Assembly (NCBI RefSeq): GCF_003234115.2
Contig: NZ_CP126251.1
Coordinates: 372,001 to 436,000, forward strand
From: Curtobacterium sp. MCPF17_002
GTDB taxonomy: Bacteria; Actinomycetota; Actinomycetes; Actinomycetales; Microbacteriaceae
Direction of reading: 5' to 3'
DNA: 64,000 bases
Both the position numbers and the translations under genes were made by a program. Each line of letters starts with the position of its first letter. Position 1 is the first letter of the stretch. This document shows, piece after piece, positions 5,350 through 63,858 of this stretch. The notes beneath the pieces were generated by a model. The model did no database searches. It was not told the origin of the DNA and was given only the letters and a program-made list of their open reading frames with translations.

Positions 5350-5422
5350 GGCGTTCAGGGTAGCCCGCCCGGTTGTCAGGCTGTCGAGGTGGACCCGGGG
5401 GAGCGCGGAGGCGCGCGCGGGT

Positions 5423-5547
5423 GCCGATCCGCGCGTGGGGAGTCGAAACGCGCGTGGTGTGCCGAATCGCGCGTAGGGAGTCGTTCTTTCCGACTGCCTA
5501 CGCGCGATCCGACCCCCTACGAGCGGAACGACCTACGCGGCGACCTA
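5423..5547. repeat. 19-bp iterated inverted-repeat array, copy 1
   Basis: Three direct 19-bp units start at 5423, 5442 and 5461 (for example GCCGAATCGCGCGTAGGGA). After a short loop they are followed by inverted units at 5495 and 5514 and degenerate half units to 5547. The centre folds as an 18-bp stem with one mismatch (5466-5483 with 5491-5508). The last CTACG gives the TAG stop codon of the FMN reductase gene. Related arrays lie at 44110-44221 and 63783-63858. Confidence 0.85.
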
Positions 5548-6120
5548 CGCCGCGACCGACTCCGACTCCGACTCCGCGCCCGACGCTGCCTCGGCGAGCG
5601 CGGTCAGCGCACCCTGCACGAGCTGCGTGACCTCGGCGTCCTCGCGCGGGTGGGTCTCGGCGAAGCGCACGACCGACTGCGGGATGGCGACCTTGACGTC
5701 CTGGAGGACCTTCGCGCCGGCGATCCCGGCGGCCTTGCGGGCGTCGTCGTGCGCCCAGACGCCGCCGTACTGGCCGAACGCCGAGCCGATGACGGCGAGC
5801 GGCTTGCCCGAGATGGGGGAGGCGCCGAACGGACGCGACGCCCAGTCCAGCGCGTTCTTGAGGACGGCGGGGATGGTGCCGTTGTACTCGGGCGTGATGA
5901 GGAGCAGGGCGTCGGCGGCGTCGATCGCGGCACGGAACGCGACGGCGGAGGCCGGCGGGGCGTCGCCGTCGATGTCCTCGTTGTAGAAGGGCAGGTCGAC
6001 GATGCCGTCGAACGTGGTGAGCTCGATGCCCTCCGGGGCGTGGTGTTCGGCCGCTTCGGCGAGCTTGCGGTTGATCGACTCGGCGCGGAGGCTGCCGACG
6101 AGGGTGAGGACGTGCGTCAT
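5545..6120 (-). CDS. NADPH-dependent FMN reductase (NAD(P)H oxidoreductase)
   Basis: This 191-residue flavodoxin-like reductase has the FMN phosphate loop VGSLRAESINRKLAE (residues 6-20) and the family motif SPEYNGTIP in the form ITPEYNGTIPAVLKNALDW near residue 85. It reduces FMN, quinones or azo compounds with NAD(P)H. The chosen ATG has AAGGAT upstream; an extension of 15 codons is open but unlikely. The acidic Ser/Glu tail is encoded right next to the 19-bp repeat array that supplies the stop codon. Confidence 0.9.
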   Translation of the reverse strand: MTHVLTLVGSLRAESINRKLAEAAEHHAPEGIELTTFDGIVDLPFYNEDIDGDAPPASAVAFRAAIDAADALLLITPEYNGTIPAVLKNALDWASRPFGASPISGKPLAVIGSAFGQYGGVWAHDDARKAAGIAGAKVLQDVKVAIPQSVVRFAETHPREDAEVTQLVQGALTALAEAASGAESESESVAA

Positions 6121-14229: not shown

Positions 14230-14305
14230 CGGCCTGGAGGCGCGTGGCGGGGACGACCCGCGCCTCCAGTCCGCCGGTGGGTCACGCCCAGGGCGACCGT
14301 CAGTC
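14224..14305. terminator. bidirectional hairpin between convergent genes
   Basis: Inner arms CTGGAGGCGCG (14234-14244) and CGCGCCTCCAG (14259-14269) are flanked by outer arms GACTGACGG (14224-14232) and CCGTCAGTC (14297-14305). The outer arms contain the stop codons of both convergent genes. This parallels the hairpin at 2097-2167. Confidence 0.75.
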
Positions 14306-22181: not shown

Positions 22182-22232
22182 GTGAGCAGGAATGGTCGGG
22201 TCCCGATCCGGAACCCGACCACTTCTGCTCAC
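22182..22232. terminator. hairpin with GTGAGCAGGAA arms, copy 1
   Basis: Arms GTGAGCAGGAATGGTCGGGT (22182-22201) and ACCCGACCACTTCTGCTCAC (22213-22232) pair with two mismatches. It sits between the LysR gene and the convergent purB. A related hairpin with nearly the same left arm lies at 51402-51452. CCGCGCCTCCAG lies just upstream at 22140-22151. Confidence 0.75.
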
Positions 22233-42644: not shown

Positions 42645-42740
42645 AGGACCGGACCTGGCGAACACCGCCGAGGTTACCTGCGCTGGCTGCACGACTCAAC
42701 TCACCCCGACAAGCTCCACCCAATGACGAGAGGAACTCCG

Positions 42741-44009
42741 ATGAGCACCACCACTGCCACGGATGTGCCGGAGAAGAAGAAGCCGAAGAAGCAGTCCCGG
42801 CTCTTCGCCAACGCCCAGCGACTCGGCCGCAGCCTGCTCCTGCCGATCGCGGTCATGCCCGCCGCGGGCATCCTGCTCCGCCTCGGTCAGGCCGACATGC
42901 TCGGGGCCATCCCGGGCTTCGAGAAGGGCGCGACGATCATCGCCGCCGCCGGCAACGGTGTCTTCACGTGGCTGCCGCTGCTCTTCGCGGTCGGCATCGC
43001 GATCGGGTGGGCGAAGAAGTCCGACGGCACCACGGCGCTCGCCGCGGTCGTCGGCTACATGGTCATGTACCAGGTCTTCGCGGCGATGTCCCCGATCGTC
43101 CTCGCGGGGGTGAAGGACGCGAGTGGCAACCAGGCCACGATCAACTTCGGTGTCCTCGGCGGCATCGTGATGGGCCTCGTCTCCGCCGTGCTGTGGGAGA
43201 AGTTCCACCGCACGAAGATGCCCGACTTCCTCGGCTTCTTCTCGGGTCGTCGTCTCGTCCCGATCCTGACGGCCGTCGCTGGCTTGATCATCGCCGTCCT
43301 GATGTCCTTCGTGTACCGCTACTTCGACATCGCCCTGACCGCTGCCGGTCAGGCCGTGGCCGACAACGCCGTGCTCGGTGGCGGCATCTTCGGCTTCGTC
43401 AACCGCATGCTGATCCCGATCGGGCTGCACCAGCTGCTCAACTTCTTCCCGTGGTTCCAGCTCGGGAGCTTCACCGGGGCGGATGGCGTCGTCTACCACG
43501 GTGACATCGCGCGCTTCCTCGCGGGCGACCCGACCGCCGGCATCTTCCAGACCGGGTTCTTCCCGATCATGATGTTCGCGCTGCCGGCCGGTGCCCTCGC
43601 GATCTGGCGCAACGCCAAGCCGCAGAACCGCAAGCTCGTCGGCGGCATCATGATCTCGGCCGCCCTCACCTCGTTCGTGACGGGCATCACCGAGCCGCTC
43701 GAGTACTCGTTCATGTTCGTGGCGTTCCCGCTCTACATCATCCACGCGGTGCTCACGGGCACCTCGCTCGCTCTCGTGAACGCGCTCGGGATCCACGACG
43801 GGTTCTCGTTCTCGGCCGGTGCGATCGACTACGTGCTCAACTTCGGCAAGGCGGACGGGGCGATCTGGCTCATCCCGATCGGTCTCGGGTACGCGGTCGT
43901 CTACTACTTCCTGTTCAGTTTCGTGATCAAGAAGTGGAACCTCCGCACCCCTGGGCGCGAAGAGGACACGATCGCTGAGAACACGATCGACGCGGCCACC
44001 AAGCCGTAG
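42741..44009 (+). CDS. PTS system EIIC component (N-acetylglucosamine/glucose type)
   Basis: This 422-residue membrane permease carries the sugar across the membrane. It has about ten helices, the family start SLLLPIAVMPAAGILLRLG, the pore motif NRMLIPIGLHQLLNFFPWF (near 235) and the ITEPLEYSFMFV motif near 315. GlcNAc and glucose members look alike; the DasR-like operator favours GlcNAc. The chosen ATG has GAGGAA upstream, and an ATG six codons earlier does not. A 46-bp palindrome follows the stop. Confidence 0.9.
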   Translation: MSTTTATDVPEKKKPKKQSRLFANAQRLGRSLLLPIAVMPAAGILLRLGQADMLGAIPGFEKGATIIAAAGNGVFTWLPLLFAVGIAIGWAKKSDGTTALAAVVGYMVMYQVFAAMSPIVLAGVKDASGNQATINFGVLGGIVMGLVSAVLWEKFHRTKMPDFLGFFSGRRLVPILTAVAGLIIAVLMSFVYRYFDIALTAAGQAVADNAVLGGGIFGFVNRMLIPIGLHQLLNFFPWFQLGSFTGADGVVYHGDIARFLAGDPTAGIFQTGFFPIMMFALPAGALAIWRNAKPQNRKLVGGIMISAALTSFVTGITEPLEYSFMFVAFPLYIIHAVLTGTSLALVNALGIHDGFSFSAGAIDYVLNFGKADGAIWLIPIGLGYAVVYYFLFSFVIKKWNLRTPGREEDTIAENTIDAATKP

Positions 44010-44023
44010 ACCGGGTCCATCTG

Positions 44024-44069
44024 ACGGACGGGAGGCGCGGTGCCAGCTGGCACCGCGCCTCCCGTCCGT
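44024..44069. terminator. perfect 46-bp palindrome after EIIC
   Basis: ACGGACGGGAGGCGCGGTGC... reads the same on both strands across 44024-44069 (23-bp arms, no loop, centre CAGCTG). A copy with one mismatch lies at 63705-63750. The two loci also share about 22 bases downstream (44078-44099 with 63757-63778). It should act as a terminator for both convergent genes. Confidence 0.85.
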
Positions 44070-44109
44070 TCTGTGGGTGCGTTCCTGCCCATCGCACCTG
44101 CAATCGGAT

Positions 44110-44221
44110 GTCGAATCGCTCGTAGGAGGCAGGAATTTCCGGCCTCCTACGAGCGATTCCGCTTCCCACGCGCGGAACGGCTTCCTCCGCGCGGGACCGC
44201 TTCCTACGGGCGGAAGGGCTA
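44110..44221. repeat. 19-bp iterated inverted-repeat array, copy 2
   Basis: One direct unit (GTCGAATCGCTCGTAGGAG, 44110-44128) is followed by four inverted 19-bp units starting at 44141, 44160, 44179 and 44198 (for example CGCTTCCTACGGGCGGAAG). The central pair is a perfect 18-bp stem (44113-44130 with 44142-44159). The next partial unit contains CTACGG, which gives the TAG stop of the minus-strand gene at 44219. Confidence 0.88.
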
Positions 44222-45295
44222 CGGGGCGGAGGGTGCGGGGGCGACGTCGACGGACGCGGAGTCGATCACCGTGCCGGCGGGGACGGCCCCGACACGATCG
44301 GTCTGCAGCGTCCGCTCGCCGAGGTAGTCGCCCGAGGTGCGGTCGACGATGACCTCGCGGCGGTCGGAACCACCGCGGTCGTCCAGGCCGATCGCGGTGC
44401 CGTGCCGCCCGTCGAGCGACGCCTGGTCGTCGGTGACGACGATCCCGGGCAACCCTGCGAGCGCGTCGTAGACCGTCGCGCGGAGCTCGTTCGGCACCAG
44501 GCCGGTGCGCAGGAAGTCCGCGAGGGTGTCGAACACCTGCTCGGCGTCCGTCGCGCCCTTCGCCCGCGGGGCCGCCTCGATGCGCCGGACGAGCGCGTCG
44601 GGGTCGCGGGGCAGGTCGGCGATGTCCGCCGGGGTCAGCGTGCCGGCCGGGGTGCCGCCGAGTTCCCCGTTCCCGAAGGCGCCGCCCGCTGCCCGCTCCC
44701 GGACCGGGTCGTCGCGGTGGGCCGACGCGGCGTAGTCCTGCTGTGCGGCCGCACGGGCGGCCCGTCCCCCGTAGATCGTGGTGGCGTGCTCGGACCACGA
44801 TTGCCGGGTCCAGGTGCCGGAGACGTCTCGTGGCACCCAGGTGATGGTCGTCGTCGGGAAGAGGTAGCCCTCGTCGTAGTGTTCGCCGTCCGAGGTGGCG
44901 TACCCGAGGGCGAGCTCGCGGACGGTCACCCGGGTGAACGCCTGGGTGGTGTCCGGCGCGCTGGTGGCTGCTCGGGCAGCGTCGTGCAGCGTCGCCGCCG
45001 CGGCAGACTCCGGACCGGGCAGGTGCGTCACGCCGACACCCGTCCCGACCAGGGCGCCGGCCGTGACGAGAACGGCGGCCGCGATGAGCACCGGGCGGTA
45101 CCGGCGGGCGCTCCGGGCGGGTCGGGTGTTCCGGACACGGCCTGGCTCGGTGCCGGGCTGGCGGGTGCCGGGCTGGCGGGTGCCGGGCTGCGCGATCCGC
45201 TGCCGGGCGCGGTGGAGTGCTGCGTCGACGACGGCCGGGGGCAGGTCGTCGACCTCGGACCGCACGGCGCGGAGCACGGTGAGTTCGTCAGGCAC
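44219..45295 (-). CDS. CU044_5270 family membrane protein, partner of ECF sigma factor
   Basis: This 358-residue protein has a cytoplasmic N-terminal part with a short helical region and a PGTRQ repeat (residues about 38-50, from a 15-bp DNA repeat), one membrane helix (YRPVLIAAAVLVTAGALVG) and a large outer domain with GLPGIVVTDDQASLDGRHG near 290. The layout is that of CU044_5270 family proteins encoded next to ECF sigma factors. It overlaps the sigma gene by 8 bases and probably controls it or responds to the same signal. Confidence 0.8.
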   Translation of the reverse strand: MPDELTVLRAVRSEVDDLPPAVVDAALHRARQRIAQPGTRQPGTRQPGTEPGRVRNTRPARSARRYRPVLIAAAVLVTAGALVGTGVGVTHLPGPESAAAATLHDAARAATSAPDTTQAFTRVTVRELALGYATSDGEHYDEGYLFPTTTITWVPRDVSGTWTRQSWSEHATTIYGGRAARAAAQQDYAASAHRDDPVRERAAGGAFGNGELGGTPAGTLTPADIADLPRDPDALVRRIEAAPRAKGATDAEQVFDTLADFLRTGLVPNELRATVYDALAGLPGIVVTDDQASLDGRHGTAIGLDDRGGSDRREVIVDRTSGDYLGERTLQTDRVGAVPAGTVIDSASVDVAPAPSAP

Positions 45296-45869
45296 GGGCT
45301 TCTCCGTTCAGGGGGTTCGTCGTGGCGGGCTCGACGCGGAGTGCGGCGCGGGCCCGGTTGAGGCGGGAGCGGACGGTGCCGATCGGGACACCGGTCGCCG
45401 CTGCGATCTGCTCGTAGGTCAGTTCGGCCCAGGCGTGCAGGAGCACGGTGTCGCGGACGGCCGGACGCATCCGGTCGAGTTCGCGGACCACGGCCTCGAC
45501 CGCACGTTCGTGGTCCAGACGCTCGCCCGGGTCGTCGTCGAGCTGTTCGGGCACCGCTGCCCGGGCCATCGCTCGTCGTCCCCGTCGTTCCGACCGCCAG
45601 TGCCGGCGGAGCAGGTTCGTCGCGATGCCGAACAGCCACGGCAGCGGATCGCCCCGGTCGTGATCGCGGGCGTCCCAGCGGGTGAGGGCGACGACGAAGG
45701 TCTCGCCGAGGACGTCCTCCGCGGTCTGCAGGTCGGTCCGGCGTGCGAGGTAGAGCAGGATCCGACGACCGTGCAGGTCGAACAGTCGACCGAGTTCGGC
45801 CGACGCGTCGGGGGGTGGGTGTGTGGTGGTCACGATGGGTACTGCCCGATCCTGCCGTCGGAGTTCCAT
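45288..45869 (-). CDS. RNA polymerase sigma factor, ECF type
   Basis: This roughly 193-residue ECF sigma factor has region 2 (LGRLFDLHGRRILLYLARR then TAEDVLGETFVVALTRW) and region 4 (MRPAVRDTVLLHAWAELTY then the helix-turn-helix EQIAAATGVPIGTVRSRLNR). Conserved LPWLFGIATNLLRRHWR lies between them. The start is uncertain: ATG 45869 is taken, and GTG 45833 would also keep region 2. It is coupled to the membrane protein gene downstream, a second sigma-plus-partner unit in this window. Confidence 0.9.
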   Translation of the reverse strand: MELRRQDRAVPIVTTTHPPPDASAELGRLFDLHGRRILLYLARRTDLQTAEDVLGETFVVALTRWDARDHDRGDPLPWLFGIATNLLRRHWRSERRGRRAMARAAVPEQLDDDPGERLDHERAVEAVVRELDRMRPAVRDTVLLHAWAELTYEQIAAATGVPIGTVRSRLNRARAALRVEPATTNPLNGEARA

Positions 45870-45913
45870 CACGCTAGTCGGAAGCGGAGCCGTCGCTGTT
45901 GTTGAGACTGGTT

Positions 45914-45943
45914 TTGACAACCGTTATCAACAAGCCCTACGCT
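45914..45943 (+). promoter_or_regulatory. znuABC-zur promoter with Zur box
   Basis: TTGACAACCGTTATCAA (45914-45930) is a near-perfect inverted repeat and matches the actinobacterial Zur box. It covers the -35 element TTGACA (45914-45919). TACGCT (45938-45943) lies 18 bases downstream and seven bases before the ATG, so the transcript is nearly leaderless. Zinc-loaded Zur bound here would block the polymerase. Confidence 0.82.
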
Positions 45944-49929: not shown

Positions 49930-51405
49930 GTGGACCTCGCAGCCTGGACCCAGTGGGCCGGCGCGTCCGAGTACGACGTCGCCCGGTTCGTCCTGCAGCG
50001 CGGCGTCGCGGCCATCGCCTGTCTGGCCTTCCTCTCCGCGCTCGCGCAGTTCCCCGCCCTCGTCGGGGAGCACGGACTGCTGCCGGTGCCGCGGTTCATG
50101 GAGCGGCCGTACGCCCGGCGACTCCCCGTGGTGTGGCGGTGGTGGCGCTACACGGACCGTCGGCTCCGGCTGCTCGCCGGCGGGGGCGCGGTGGTGTCCT
50201 TCGCGCTCGTCGTCGGGCTGCCGCAGCGTGCGCCGTGGTGGGTGCCGGTGCTGTGCTTCCTCGTGCTCTGGCTCGCGTACCTGTCGATCTCCGACGTCGG
50301 GCAGACCTTCTGGGCGTTCGGGTGGGAGTCGCTGCTCGTCGAGGCGCTCTTCACGGTGGCGTTCCTCGGCGCGGACGACGTGGCACCGCCGATCGTCGTG
50401 CTCGTCGCACTGCGGTGGCTGGTGTTCCGGCTCGAGTTCGGCGCCGGGATGATCAAGATGCGCGGCGACCGGTCGTGGCGGGACCTGACCGCGCTCTACT
50501 ACCACCACGAGACGCAGCCGATGCCGAACCCCGTCTCCCGCACGGCCCACCTGCTGCCGCGGCCCGTGCACCGGTTCGAGACGCTCGGCAGCCACTTCGT
50601 GCAGCTCGTCGTGCCCTTCTTCCTGTTCGCGCCGCAGCCGGTGGCGTCGATCGCCGCCGCCCTCGTCCTGCTCACGCAGCTCTGGCTCGTGGTGTCGGGG
50701 AACTTCGCGTGGCTCAACTGGATCACGCTCGTCCTCGCCTTCGCCGCGGTCGACGACCGGTCCGTCGCCGCCGTCCTGCCCGGGCTCGAACCGCTGGTGT
50801 CGTCTGGCCCGACCGCGACGCCGGTGCCCTTCGTGGCGGTCACCGTGGCGGTCGGGGTGCTCCTCGCGTGGCTGTCCTGGCCCGCCGCGAAGAACCTGGT
50901 GTCCCGGCGGCAGCTCATGAACGCCTCGTTCAACCGGTGGCACCTCGCGAACGCGTACGGAGCGTTCGGCAGCGTCACCCAGGAGCGCGACGAGGTCATC
51001 GTGGAGGGGACGCTCGCCGAGGTGCCGTACGAGGAGGACTGGCAGCCCTACGAGTTCCGCGGCAAGCCCGGCGATCCGCGACGGCGGCCAGCCCAGTTCG
51101 CGCCGTACCACCTGCGGCTCGACTGGCTGATGTGGTTCCTCGCGCTCGGGGTCGACGACCGGTGGTTCCGCGTCTTCGTGCTCCGGCTGCTCGAGGCCGA
51201 CCGGCCGACGCTGCGGCTCCTCGCCCACGACCCGTTCGGCGGGGAGCGGCCGCGGTGGGTCCGTGCGCGGATGTTCCGCTACCGGTTCGCGACGCGGGCC
51301 GAGCGGCGGGAGTCGGGGCTGTACTGGATCCGGGAGGAGCGGTACCTGGTCCTGCCGCCGGTCGCGCTCCCGGGGCGCCCGCCCGCTCGCCCGTCCGCTT
51401 CGTGA
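49930..51405 (+). CDS. lipase maturation factor family protein
   Basis: This 491-residue membrane protein matches the lipase-maturation-factor family. It has about seven helices, LPVPRFMERP near 55, FGWESLLVEA near 137, MIKMRGDRSWRDLTALYYHHETQPMP near 175 (in adjacent blocks), and the soluble C-terminal part with YEFRGKPGDP and APYHLRLDWLMWF. In animals LMF1 folds lipases; the bacterial role is unknown. TAGCGT lies seven bases before the GTG. The stop codon sits in the left arm of the hairpin at 51402-51452. Confidence 0.88.
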   Translation: MDLAAWTQWAGASEYDVARFVLQRGVAAIACLAFLSALAQFPALVGEHGLLPVPRFMERPYARRLPVVWRWWRYTDRRLRLLAGGGAVVSFALVVGLPQRAPWWVPVLCFLVLWLAYLSISDVGQTFWAFGWESLLVEALFTVAFLGADDVAPPIVVLVALRWLVFRLEFGAGMIKMRGDRSWRDLTALYYHHETQPMPNPVSRTAHLLPRPVHRFETLGSHFVQLVVPFFLFAPQPVASIAAALVLLTQLWLVVSGNFAWLNWITLVLAFAAVDDRSVAAVLPGLEPLVSSGPTATPVPFVAVTVAVGVLLAWLSWPAAKNLVSRRQLMNASFNRWHLANAYGAFGSVTQERDEVIVEGTLAEVPYEEDWQPYEFRGKPGDPRRRPAQFAPYHLRLDWLMWFLALGVDDRWFRVFVLRLLEADRPTLRLLAHDPFGGERPRWVRARMFRYRFATRAERRESGLYWIREERYLVLPPVALPGRPPARPSAS

Positions 51406-51452
51406 GCAGGAACGGTCGGGTCAGCCTGCTGCAGGTGACCGTTCCTGCTCAC
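51402..51452. terminator. hairpin with GTGAGCAGGAA arms, copy 2
   Basis: GTGAGCAGGAACGGTC (51402-51417) and GACCGTTCCTGCTCAC (51437-51452) pair perfectly over 16 bases, with an inner CCTGCTGCAGG palindrome. The left arm contains the TGA stop codon of the upstream gene. It is related to the hairpin at 22182-22232. Confidence 0.8.
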
Positions 51453-56749: not shown

Positions 56750-56888
56750 GATCGCACTTCGGCGGGGACCATTCGGCAGGAGGCGCGCCGAAGTGCGATC
56801 TCACCGCGATGGCGTGCCGGGGAGGCGCGCCGAAGTGCGATCTCACCGCGATGCCGTGCCGGGGACGCGCGCCGAAGTGCGATCTCAC
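56748..56888. repeat. 42-bp tandem repeat with inverted leader
   Basis: GAGATCGCACTTCGGCG (56748-56764) is the inverse of a core repeated three times as CGCCGAAGTGCGATCTCAC. Units start at 56781, 56823 and 56865 with a 42-bp period. The first copy can pair with the inverted leader to form a hairpin. It lies between the convergent helicase and DUF4383 genes. Confidence 0.88.
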
Positions 56889-62546: not shown

Positions 62547-63686
62547 ATGCAGTTCGGTATCTTCACCGTCAGCGACGTCACGACGGACCCCACGACCGGC
62601 ACCACGCCGGACGACACCCAGCGCGTCCGGGACATCCTGACGATCGCCGAGCACGCCGACCAGGCCGGCCTCGACGTCTTCGCCACGGGTGAGCACCACA
62701 ACCCGCCGTTCGTCGCGTCCTCGCCGACGACGATGCTCGCCTACCTCGCCGCGAAGACGAAGCACATCACGCTCTCGACCTCGACGACCCTCATCACCAC
62801 GAACGACCCGGTGCGCATCGCCGAGGAGTACGCGATGCTCCAGGTCATCTCCGACGGCCGCATGGACCTCATGATGGGCCGCGGCAACACCGGCCCGGTC
62901 TACCCGTGGTTCGGGCAGGACATCCGGCAGGGCGTCAACCTCGCGATCGAGCACTACGCGCTCGTCCGCCAGCTCTGGGAGAACGACGTCGTCGACTGGC
63001 AGGGCAAGTTCCGCACGCCGCTGCAGGGCTTCACCTCGACCCCGCGTCCGCTCGACGGTGTGCCGCCCTTCGTGTGGCACGGCTCGATCCGCACGCCGGA
63101 GATCGCCGAGCAGGCCGCCTACTACGGCGACGGGTTCTTCCACAACAACATCTTCTGGCCCATCCACCACACCTCGCAGATGGTCGACCTCTACCGTCAG
63201 CGCTTCGAGCACTACGGGCACGGGGCCGCGAACCAGGCGATCGTGGGCCTCGGTGGGCAGTTCTTCGCCCGGAAGAACTCGCAGGACGCGGTCGCGGAGT
63301 TCCGTCCCTACTTCGACAACGCCCCGGTCTACGGCCACGGCCCCTCGATGGAGGACTTCACCGAGCAGACCCCGCTCACCGTGGGCTCCCCGCAGCAGGT
63401 CATCGACCGGTACGCCGCGATGAAGGACCACGTCGGGCACTACCAGCGCCAGCTGTTCCTCGTGGACCACGCGGGGCTGCCGCTCAAGACGGTGCTCGAG
63501 CAGATCGACATCCTCGCCTCGGACATCGTGCCGGAGCTCCGGAAGATCAACGACGACGGCCGCCCGGCGGACGTGCCGTCCGACCCGCCGTCGCACGCGT
63601 CGCGTGTCGCCGCGGCGATCGCCGCCGGCACGGCGGGCAGCGACCACGTCGCTGCGGAGGACGCGTGGACGGGCGCGTCCGTCTGA
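62547..63686 (+). CDS. LLM class flavin-dependent oxidoreductase
   Basis: This 379-residue protein is a bacterial luciferase-like monooxygenase: MQFGIFTVSDVT at the start, FATGEHHNPPFVASSPTTML near 45, the flavin region around DGRMDLMMGRGNTGP near 105, and AEQAAYYGDGFF near 185. It would oxidise an organic substrate with reduced FMN or F420 and oxygen. The ATG has AGGAGG upstream. The last 40 residues are an Ala-rich tail. A 46-bp palindrome follows the stop. Confidence 0.9.
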   Translation: MQFGIFTVSDVTTDPTTGTTPDDTQRVRDILTIAEHADQAGLDVFATGEHHNPPFVASSPTTMLAYLAAKTKHITLSTSTTLITTNDPVRIAEEYAMLQVISDGRMDLMMGRGNTGPVYPWFGQDIRQGVNLAIEHYALVRQLWENDVVDWQGKFRTPLQGFTSTPRPLDGVPPFVWHGSIRTPEIAEQAAYYGDGFFHNNIFWPIHHTSQMVDLYRQRFEHYGHGAANQAIVGLGGQFFARKNSQDAVAEFRPYFDNAPVYGHGPSMEDFTEQTPLTVGSPQQVIDRYAAMKDHVGHYQRQLFLVDHAGLPLKTVLEQIDILASDIVPELRKINDDGRPADVPSDPPSHASRVAAAIAAGTAGSDHVAAEDAWTGASV

Positions 63687-63704: not shown

Positions 63705-63750
63705 ACGGACTGGAGGCGCGGTGCCAGCTGGCACCGCGCCTCCCGTCCGT
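63705..63750. terminator. 46-bp palindrome after the monooxygenase gene
   Basis: Arms at 63705-63727 and 63728-63750 pair with one mismatch around the CAGCTG centre. The sequence matches 44024-44069 at 45 of 46 positions and contains CTGGAGGCGCGG. The shared flank GTGCGTTCCTGCCCATCGCA follows at 63757. Confidence 0.85.
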
Positions 63751-63782
63751 CTCGGCGTGCGTTCCTGCCCATCGCACCCGCA

Positions 63783-63858
63783 GTAGGAGGCCGAATCGCG
63801 CGTTGGATGCAGGAAGTTCCTGCTCCCCATGCGCGGATCTGCCTCCTACGCGCGGATC
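63783..63858. repeat. 19-bp iterated inverted-repeat array, copy 3
   Basis: A partial and a full direct unit (GCCGAATCGCGCGTTGGAT, 63790-63808) are followed by inverted units TGCTCCCCATGCGCGGATC (63821) and TGCCTCCTACGCGCGGATC (63840). The last unit lies inside the 3' end of the SMR gene and provides its TAG stop codon (63846-63848). Confidence 0.85.

What the first reader, a model, noticed from the sequence alone, without database searches (positions are those of the whole stretch)
44024..44221. Composite module: 46-bp palindrome, conserved spacer, 19-bp array, found twice
At 44024 and 63705 the same three parts follow in order: a 46-bp palindrome (45/46 identical), a shared stretch beginning GTGCGTTCCTGCCCATCGCA, and the 19-bp array. 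In both cases the module lies just after a plus-strand stop codon and runs into the stop codon of the next minus-strand gene. A module of about 170-200 bp has therefore moved or been copied between unrelated gene ends.
Basis: seen in the sequence. Interest (0 to 1): 0.6.

Follow-up and report, generated by a model that had tools for sequence, protein, structure and literature searches.

The report
Gene-end repeat element with species dialects
The two copies are members of a roughly 50-copy family of short non-coding DNA elements at gene ends in the plant-associated bacterium Curtobacterium; species keep the elements at many of the same gene ends but spell their repeated core in different 'dialects', which hints at an unknown partner that reads or copies them.

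Summary
The palindrome (P) and the core+array (E) are separate. P is the ordinary gene-end hairpin: it stands after both genes in nearly all 40 Curtobacterium species examined, with or without an array. E is a dispersed element: core GTTCCTNCCCAT, a covarying 16-bp dyad, and usually 1-5 direct half-site copies at 19-bp steps. The window's genome has about 50 copies, all intergenic, mostly against gene 3' ends; 30 of 40 Curtobacterium species carry the family, other genera essentially not. E is not a recent jumper: 14 of 15 sampled sites of one relative lie in gene-end intervals that hold an element here. The surprise is 'dialects': dyad and array sequence differ together between species (CGCGCGTAGGAGG versus CGGGCGTACCTGG), and 20 of 40 sampled dialect-II sites match a dialect-I element here, in place and orientation. 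No RAYT-type transposase, Rfam family, phage or plasmid copy was found.

The parts
42723..44009 (+). PTS EIIC gene whose 3' end carries the first copy
   Evidence: Pfam PF02378 E=3e-64; ORF list
44024..44069 (.). 46-bp palindrome P: gene-end (terminator-like) hairpin, present at this locus in nearly all Curtobacterium species
44081..44116 (+). Conserved core of element E (GTTCCTGCCCATCGCAC... to the start of the dyad)
44117..44155 (+). Dyad: two facing half-sites (dialect I), covarying 16-bp stem
44156..44216 (+). Three further direct half-site copies at 19-bp steps
44219..45295 (-). Opposite gene ending against the array (no Pfam match; next to a sigma-70-like gene at 45288-45920)
62547..63686 (+). 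Luciferase-like monooxygenase gene whose 3' end carries the second copy
   Evidence: Pfam PF00296 E=6.5e-70
63705..63750 (.). Palindrome P, 45/46 identical to the first
63761..63796 (+). Conserved core of element E, second copy
63797..63835 (+). Dyad (dialect I), second copy
63836..63858 (+). One further 19-bp unit; it contains the stop codon (63846-63848) of the minus-strand small multidrug resistance gene
5412..5560 (.). Third, core-less copy in the window: dyad with 19-bp units on both sides

Best explanation
E is an old, genus-specific, non-coding interspersed element of about 80-200 bp: a fixed core, a dyad of two facing half-sites, and usually 1-5 extra direct half-sites at 19-bp steps. 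It spread by copying to gene 3' ends, often 8-10 nt past a terminator palindrome, in an ancestor or ancestors of present Curtobacterium. It has since stayed at many of the same gene ends under sequence constraint. Shown: copy number, placement, sharing of sites, covariation, dialects. Inferred: it acts at the DNA level as a gene-end boundary or back-up terminator between converging genes, and the half-sites are read by a sequence-specific factor, or overwritten by a copying process, which explains why all half-sites of an element, and nearly all elements of a genome, share one dialect.
For: 49 of 49 scored copies intergenic; array side faces a gene 3' end in 40 of 49; 28 convergent, 1 divergent (Fisher p=0.002 and 0.0009 against window gaps). 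Terminator-type hairpin on the core side in 25, on the array side in 6. Orthologous sites shared across species. In the closest pair sampled, orthologous elements are more alike than non-orthologous ones (0.856 versus 0.730); against the more distant G000 that signal is gone in the core although the family consensus persists. Dyad covaries: 92% of cells paired versus 79% shuffled, 76 double changes versus 34.5, 0 of 500 shuffles; array units follow the dyad. In one convergent gap G012 has E alone, without P, where element-less species have P alone.
Against: No binding factor, transposase or expression data found. Eight copies have the array facing a promoter, which a pure 3'-end role does not predict. 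Ten of 40 species do without E. G-T and A-C mismatches are equal (119 versus 120), also in one-direction contexts, so no RNA-strand signature; the same test on P is inconclusive, so its power is low. The two-gene species tree is too weak to date dialect switches.
Confidence: 0.45

Rival explanations
1. Non-autonomous mobile repeat with no host role: two subfamilies (dialects I and II) repeatedly colonised Curtobacterium genomes and each inserts preferentially next to gene-end hairpins, so the same sites are hit independently.
For: Adjacent I and II copies at one gene end in G029 (II+P, II+P, I+P); six genes end inside the array and take their stop codon from it, tails ...RA* or ...RS*; preference for hairpins on the core side; dialects scattered on a rough tree.
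Against: No Y1 transposase in 40 species; no phage, plasmid or viral copy; no clean insertion boundary or target duplication seen; shared sites also where no canonical palindrome exists (3505648, 3309445, 2977884, 336004); closest pair shows in-place descent.
Confidence: 0.3
2. RNA-level element: a bidirectional terminator or 3'-UTR structure, conserved because both transcripts fold.
For: Very stable predicted folds (z -10.8 and -8.5); convergent-gap bias; covarying stem; E replaces P in G012.
Against: G-T equals A-C overall and in one-direction contexts; no U-tract seen; does not explain the direct 19-bp units or the genome-wide dialect.
Confidence: 0.2
3. Part of a larger segmental duplication or an assembly artefact.
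For: None.
Against: Homology stops at the module ends; about 50 copies in the genome; independent genomes share them.
Confidence: 0.01

Closest known systems
BOX, RUP and SPRITE repeats of Streptococcus pneumoniae (PMC3049150)
   Same: Short interspersed, intergenic, over-represented between convergent genes; BOX has fixed end modules and a variable number of inner units; SPRITE sits at gene 3' ends and resembles a terminator.
   Different: No sequence relation known; here the repeated unit is a 19-bp half-site also used in a dyad, sites are shared between species, and the unit has species dialects.
REP/BIME elements with RAYT transposases
   Same: Extragenic palindromes at gene 3' ends, tens to hundreds of copies.
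   Different: No RAYT (Y1_Tnp) in 40 species; direct 19-bp array; fixed core.
DNA uptake sequence dialects of Neisseriaceae (PMC3630211)
   Same: Short motif that differs in concert genome-wide between related species; a genome can hold two dialects.
   Different: About 50 copies per genome rather than thousands; far longer composite element; no uptake data.
Miniature inverted-repeat transposable elements (review PMC10969869)
   Same: Small, non-coding, multicopy, palindromic.
   Different: No insertion-sequence ends or target duplications identified; long-term residence at shared sites.

Membership tests
REP/BIME (RAYT-associated) | RAYT transposase of the Y1 family in the genome or genus | tested here: not met
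   PF01797: 0 of 40 Curtobacterium genomes, controls positive
REP/BIME (RAYT-associated) | Extragenic palindrome at gene 3' ends | tested here: met
BOX-like modular interspersed repeat | Conserved end module plus variable number of tandem units, intergenic, multicopy | tested here: met
   0-5 units right of the dyad, 49 copies; architecture only
BOX-like modular interspersed repeat | Sequence homology to boxA, boxB or boxC | not tested
   No BOX sequences were fetched for comparison
Miniature inverted-repeat transposable element | Terminal inverted repeats matching an insertion sequence and target-site duplication | tested here: inconclusive
   Occupied and empty sites compared: no clean boundary or duplication seen, species too diverged; no insertion-sequence search made
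DNA uptake sequence | Preferential uptake through a cognate receptor | not testable with these tools
   Only the dialect pattern resembles it
Intrinsic terminator | Hairpin followed by U-tract, transcript 3' ends | tested here: inconclusive
   Hairpin and gene-end placement met, no U-tract by inspection; no RNA data
Known structured RNA | Rfam match at the element | tested here: not met
   Only sub-threshold miRNA matches in five loci

The most novel reading that the evidence does not exclude
About 50 dispersed gene-end sites form one DNA-level system read by an unknown sequence-specific factor. When the factor's specificity changes in a lineage, the half-sites in dyads and arrays across the genome are rewritten in place, giving species dialects.
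Probability: 0.25. Interest if true: 0.8.

Novelty: new variant of a known kind. Interest (0 to 1): 0.58.

Why it matters
Interspersed bacterial repeats are usually seen either as selfish relics or as terminators. Here one family keeps many of its sites across species while the sequence of its repeated half-site differs in concert, in the dyad, the array and dozens of loci at once. That makes it testable whether such repeats are maintained by a host factor, by gene conversion or by repeated targeted insertion. It also shows that gene-end regions in this genus are built from stacked modules: a common palindrome, this element, and other hairpin families.

Tried and rejected
Larger duplication: rejected. 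Palindrome as an integral part of the mobile module at these sites: rejected by element-less species that keep it. REP/RAYT: rejected for lack of Y1 transposase. Known RNA family: none. Plasmid, phage or viral origin: none found. A master gene next to elements in few-copy species: ordinary, unrelated genes judged from translations only. A two-gene species tree was too weak to time dialect switches. Outer arms of the inverted repeat (columns 24-35 with 77-88) show no covariation. Three literature searches for repeats in Curtobacterium or Microbacteriaceae found no description of this family; a fourth broader one listed nothing obviously relevant.

Full report
Observation. The window is bases 372001-436000 of a complete 3.82-Mb genome. 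The genus is Curtobacterium: the exact core motif was found in Curtobacterium sp. 'Ferrero'. Both modules are as described. The 46-bp palindromes match at 45/46, and BLAST between the two regions gives one direct 160-bp alignment at 84% that ends with the module. The first lies after a PTS EIIC gene, the second between a luciferase-like monooxygenase and a small multidrug resistance gene.

Anatomy. Aligning 20 genomic copies gives a gap-free 98-column alignment: core GTTCCTGCCCATCGCACCCGCA, then GTAGGAAGCGGAATCGCGCGTAGGAGGCAGGAA facing its inverted copy, then further direct units TTCCTACGCGCGGAACGGC at 19-bp steps. The number of units right of the centre is mostly 1-4, range 0-5. The '19-bp array' is therefore a dyad plus direct repeats of its right half. 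A core-less copy with units on both sides lies at 5412-5560 of the window.

Copies and placement. A profile search finds about 50 elements in the genome; 49 scored in fetched stretches are all intergenic, in a window that is 11.6% non-coding by the same gene caller. The array side faces a gene 3' end in 40 of 49; 28 are convergent, 20 tandem, 1 divergent, against 9, 19 and 10 of the window's gaps of at least 60 bp. In six the stop codon of the neighbouring gene lies inside the array, giving C-termini ...RA* (five) or ...RS* (one).

Palindrome and element are separate. Orthologous regions of both loci were fetched from 30 species each. The palindrome stands after the same gene in nearly all of them; the element is present only in G000, G060, G029, G061 and G032 at the first site, and G000, G060, G017 and G024 at the second. 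G030 has the same convergent gene pair as the first site with palindrome and no element. In the genome 25 of 49 elements have a GGAGG/CCTCC hairpin within 90 nt of the core and 6 on the array side, often with the core 17-18 nt past its inner GCCTCC, that is 8-10 nt past the palindrome. In one convergent gap the element-free species have only the palindrome, G018 and G001 have both, G012 has the element alone, and G029 has three tandem element-palindrome units.

Distribution. A dialect I model hits 25 of 59 relatives, all Curtobacterium; over 299 genomes of the family only Curtobacterium scores well, with weak hits in one other genus. With a dialect II model 30 of 40 Curtobacterium species carry the family.

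Dialects and shared sites. Species differ in the sequence of both dyad arms and of the array units: CGCGCGTAGGAGGCAGG (I) or CGGGCGTACCTGGTCGG (II). All 52 scored copies in G000 are I; all 47 scored in the fetched stretches of G001, G012 and G033 are II (those stretches were chosen with the dialect II model, but the dialect I model finds only weak matches in these genomes). G029 and G060 hold both. Fourteen of 15 fetched G029 loci fall in G000 intervals that hold an element, though at some (such as L169 and L181) the G000 copy is a kilobase away or degenerate. For dialect II species, 20 of 40 fetched loci have a dialect I element of G000 at the same gene end, in the same orientation, within 130 bp (my count from the listed rows). 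A binomial test for 21 of 40 against the 6.5% of the genome held in those stretches gives 4e-15. Four such sites lack the canonical palindrome.

Tempo. In the close pair G060/G029, pooled identity is 0.853 in elements, 0.901 in the adjacent 120 nt and 0.929 elsewhere; orthologous elements are more alike than non-orthologous ones, 0.856 versus 0.730. Against G000 orthologous dialect I cores are no more alike than random pairs, 0.725 versus 0.721, with only the array columns still showing a signal. So elements descend in place but change fast within a fixed consensus. I read this as constraint or homogenisation, not decay; that is inference.

Structure. In 36 sequences, mostly one per species, the 16-bp dyad is 92% paired against 78.7% in shuffles, with 76 double changes against 34.5 (0 of 500), and sliding the partner destroys it. 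The structure was read from these sequences, which favours it somewhat. Over 196 copies the array unit follows the dyad. G-T and A-C mismatches are equal (119, 120), also where only one strand is expected to be transcribed, which argues against a strand-specific RNA, with low power because the palindrome control is inconclusive.

What it is not. No Y1 transposase in the genus, no Rfam family, no plasmid, phage or viral relative at the sensitivity used.

Mechanism. I favour an old BOX/SPRITE-like interspersed repeat, kept at gene ends as a DNA-level boundary or back-up terminator, with half-sites either read by a factor or homogenised by copying. Pneumococcal BOX, RUP and SPRITE share the convergent-gene bias, and SPRITE the 3'-end position (PMC3049150). 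The nearest parallel for the dialects is the DNA uptake sequence of Neisseriaceae (PMC3630211). The rival, repeated targeted insertion by two mobile subfamilies, is supported by adjacent I and II copies in G029 and cannot be excluded without strain-level genomes.

Noticed in passing
44024-44069, 63705-63750, 2112-2152, 14236-14267: The GGAGGC..GCCTCC palindrome is itself a genus-wide repeated gene-end hairpin; at orthologous sites its arms change in compensated pairs (GCGCGG/CCGCGC, GCCCGG/CCGGGC, GCACGG/CCGTGC, GCTCGG/CCGAGC).
   Followed up: partly
Second-site orthologues, e.g. L121, L126, L132, L120, L119: Species without the element at this gene end often carry other hairpin-plus-short-array families in the same place (CCGAGTCTCG units at about 21 bp, CGGCGCGCGTCCCGGGACT at 19 bp, GCGAAAGCGACAG hairpins), so gene ends may host several analogous families.
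   Followed up: no
22182-22232 and 51402-51452: GTGAGCAG...CTGCTCAC pairs 43 bp apart, possibly copies of the hairpin family seen upstream of the palindrome in G029, G060, G011 and G033.
   Followed up: no
63846-63848 and five other genes of the genome: Genes whose stop codon and last residues (...RA* or ...RS*) are encoded by the 19-bp array.
   Followed up: partly
L002:2883-2940: msiK RNA (Rfam RF01747, 50.3 bits, above its gathering score), over 1 kb from the element copy in this locus.
   Followed up: no
G065:C1:1403540 and 1448644: Weak dyad-like hits in another genus of the family; possible distant relative.
   Followed up: no
56779-56888: 42-bp tandem repeat, 2.6 copies at 97% match.
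   Followed up: no
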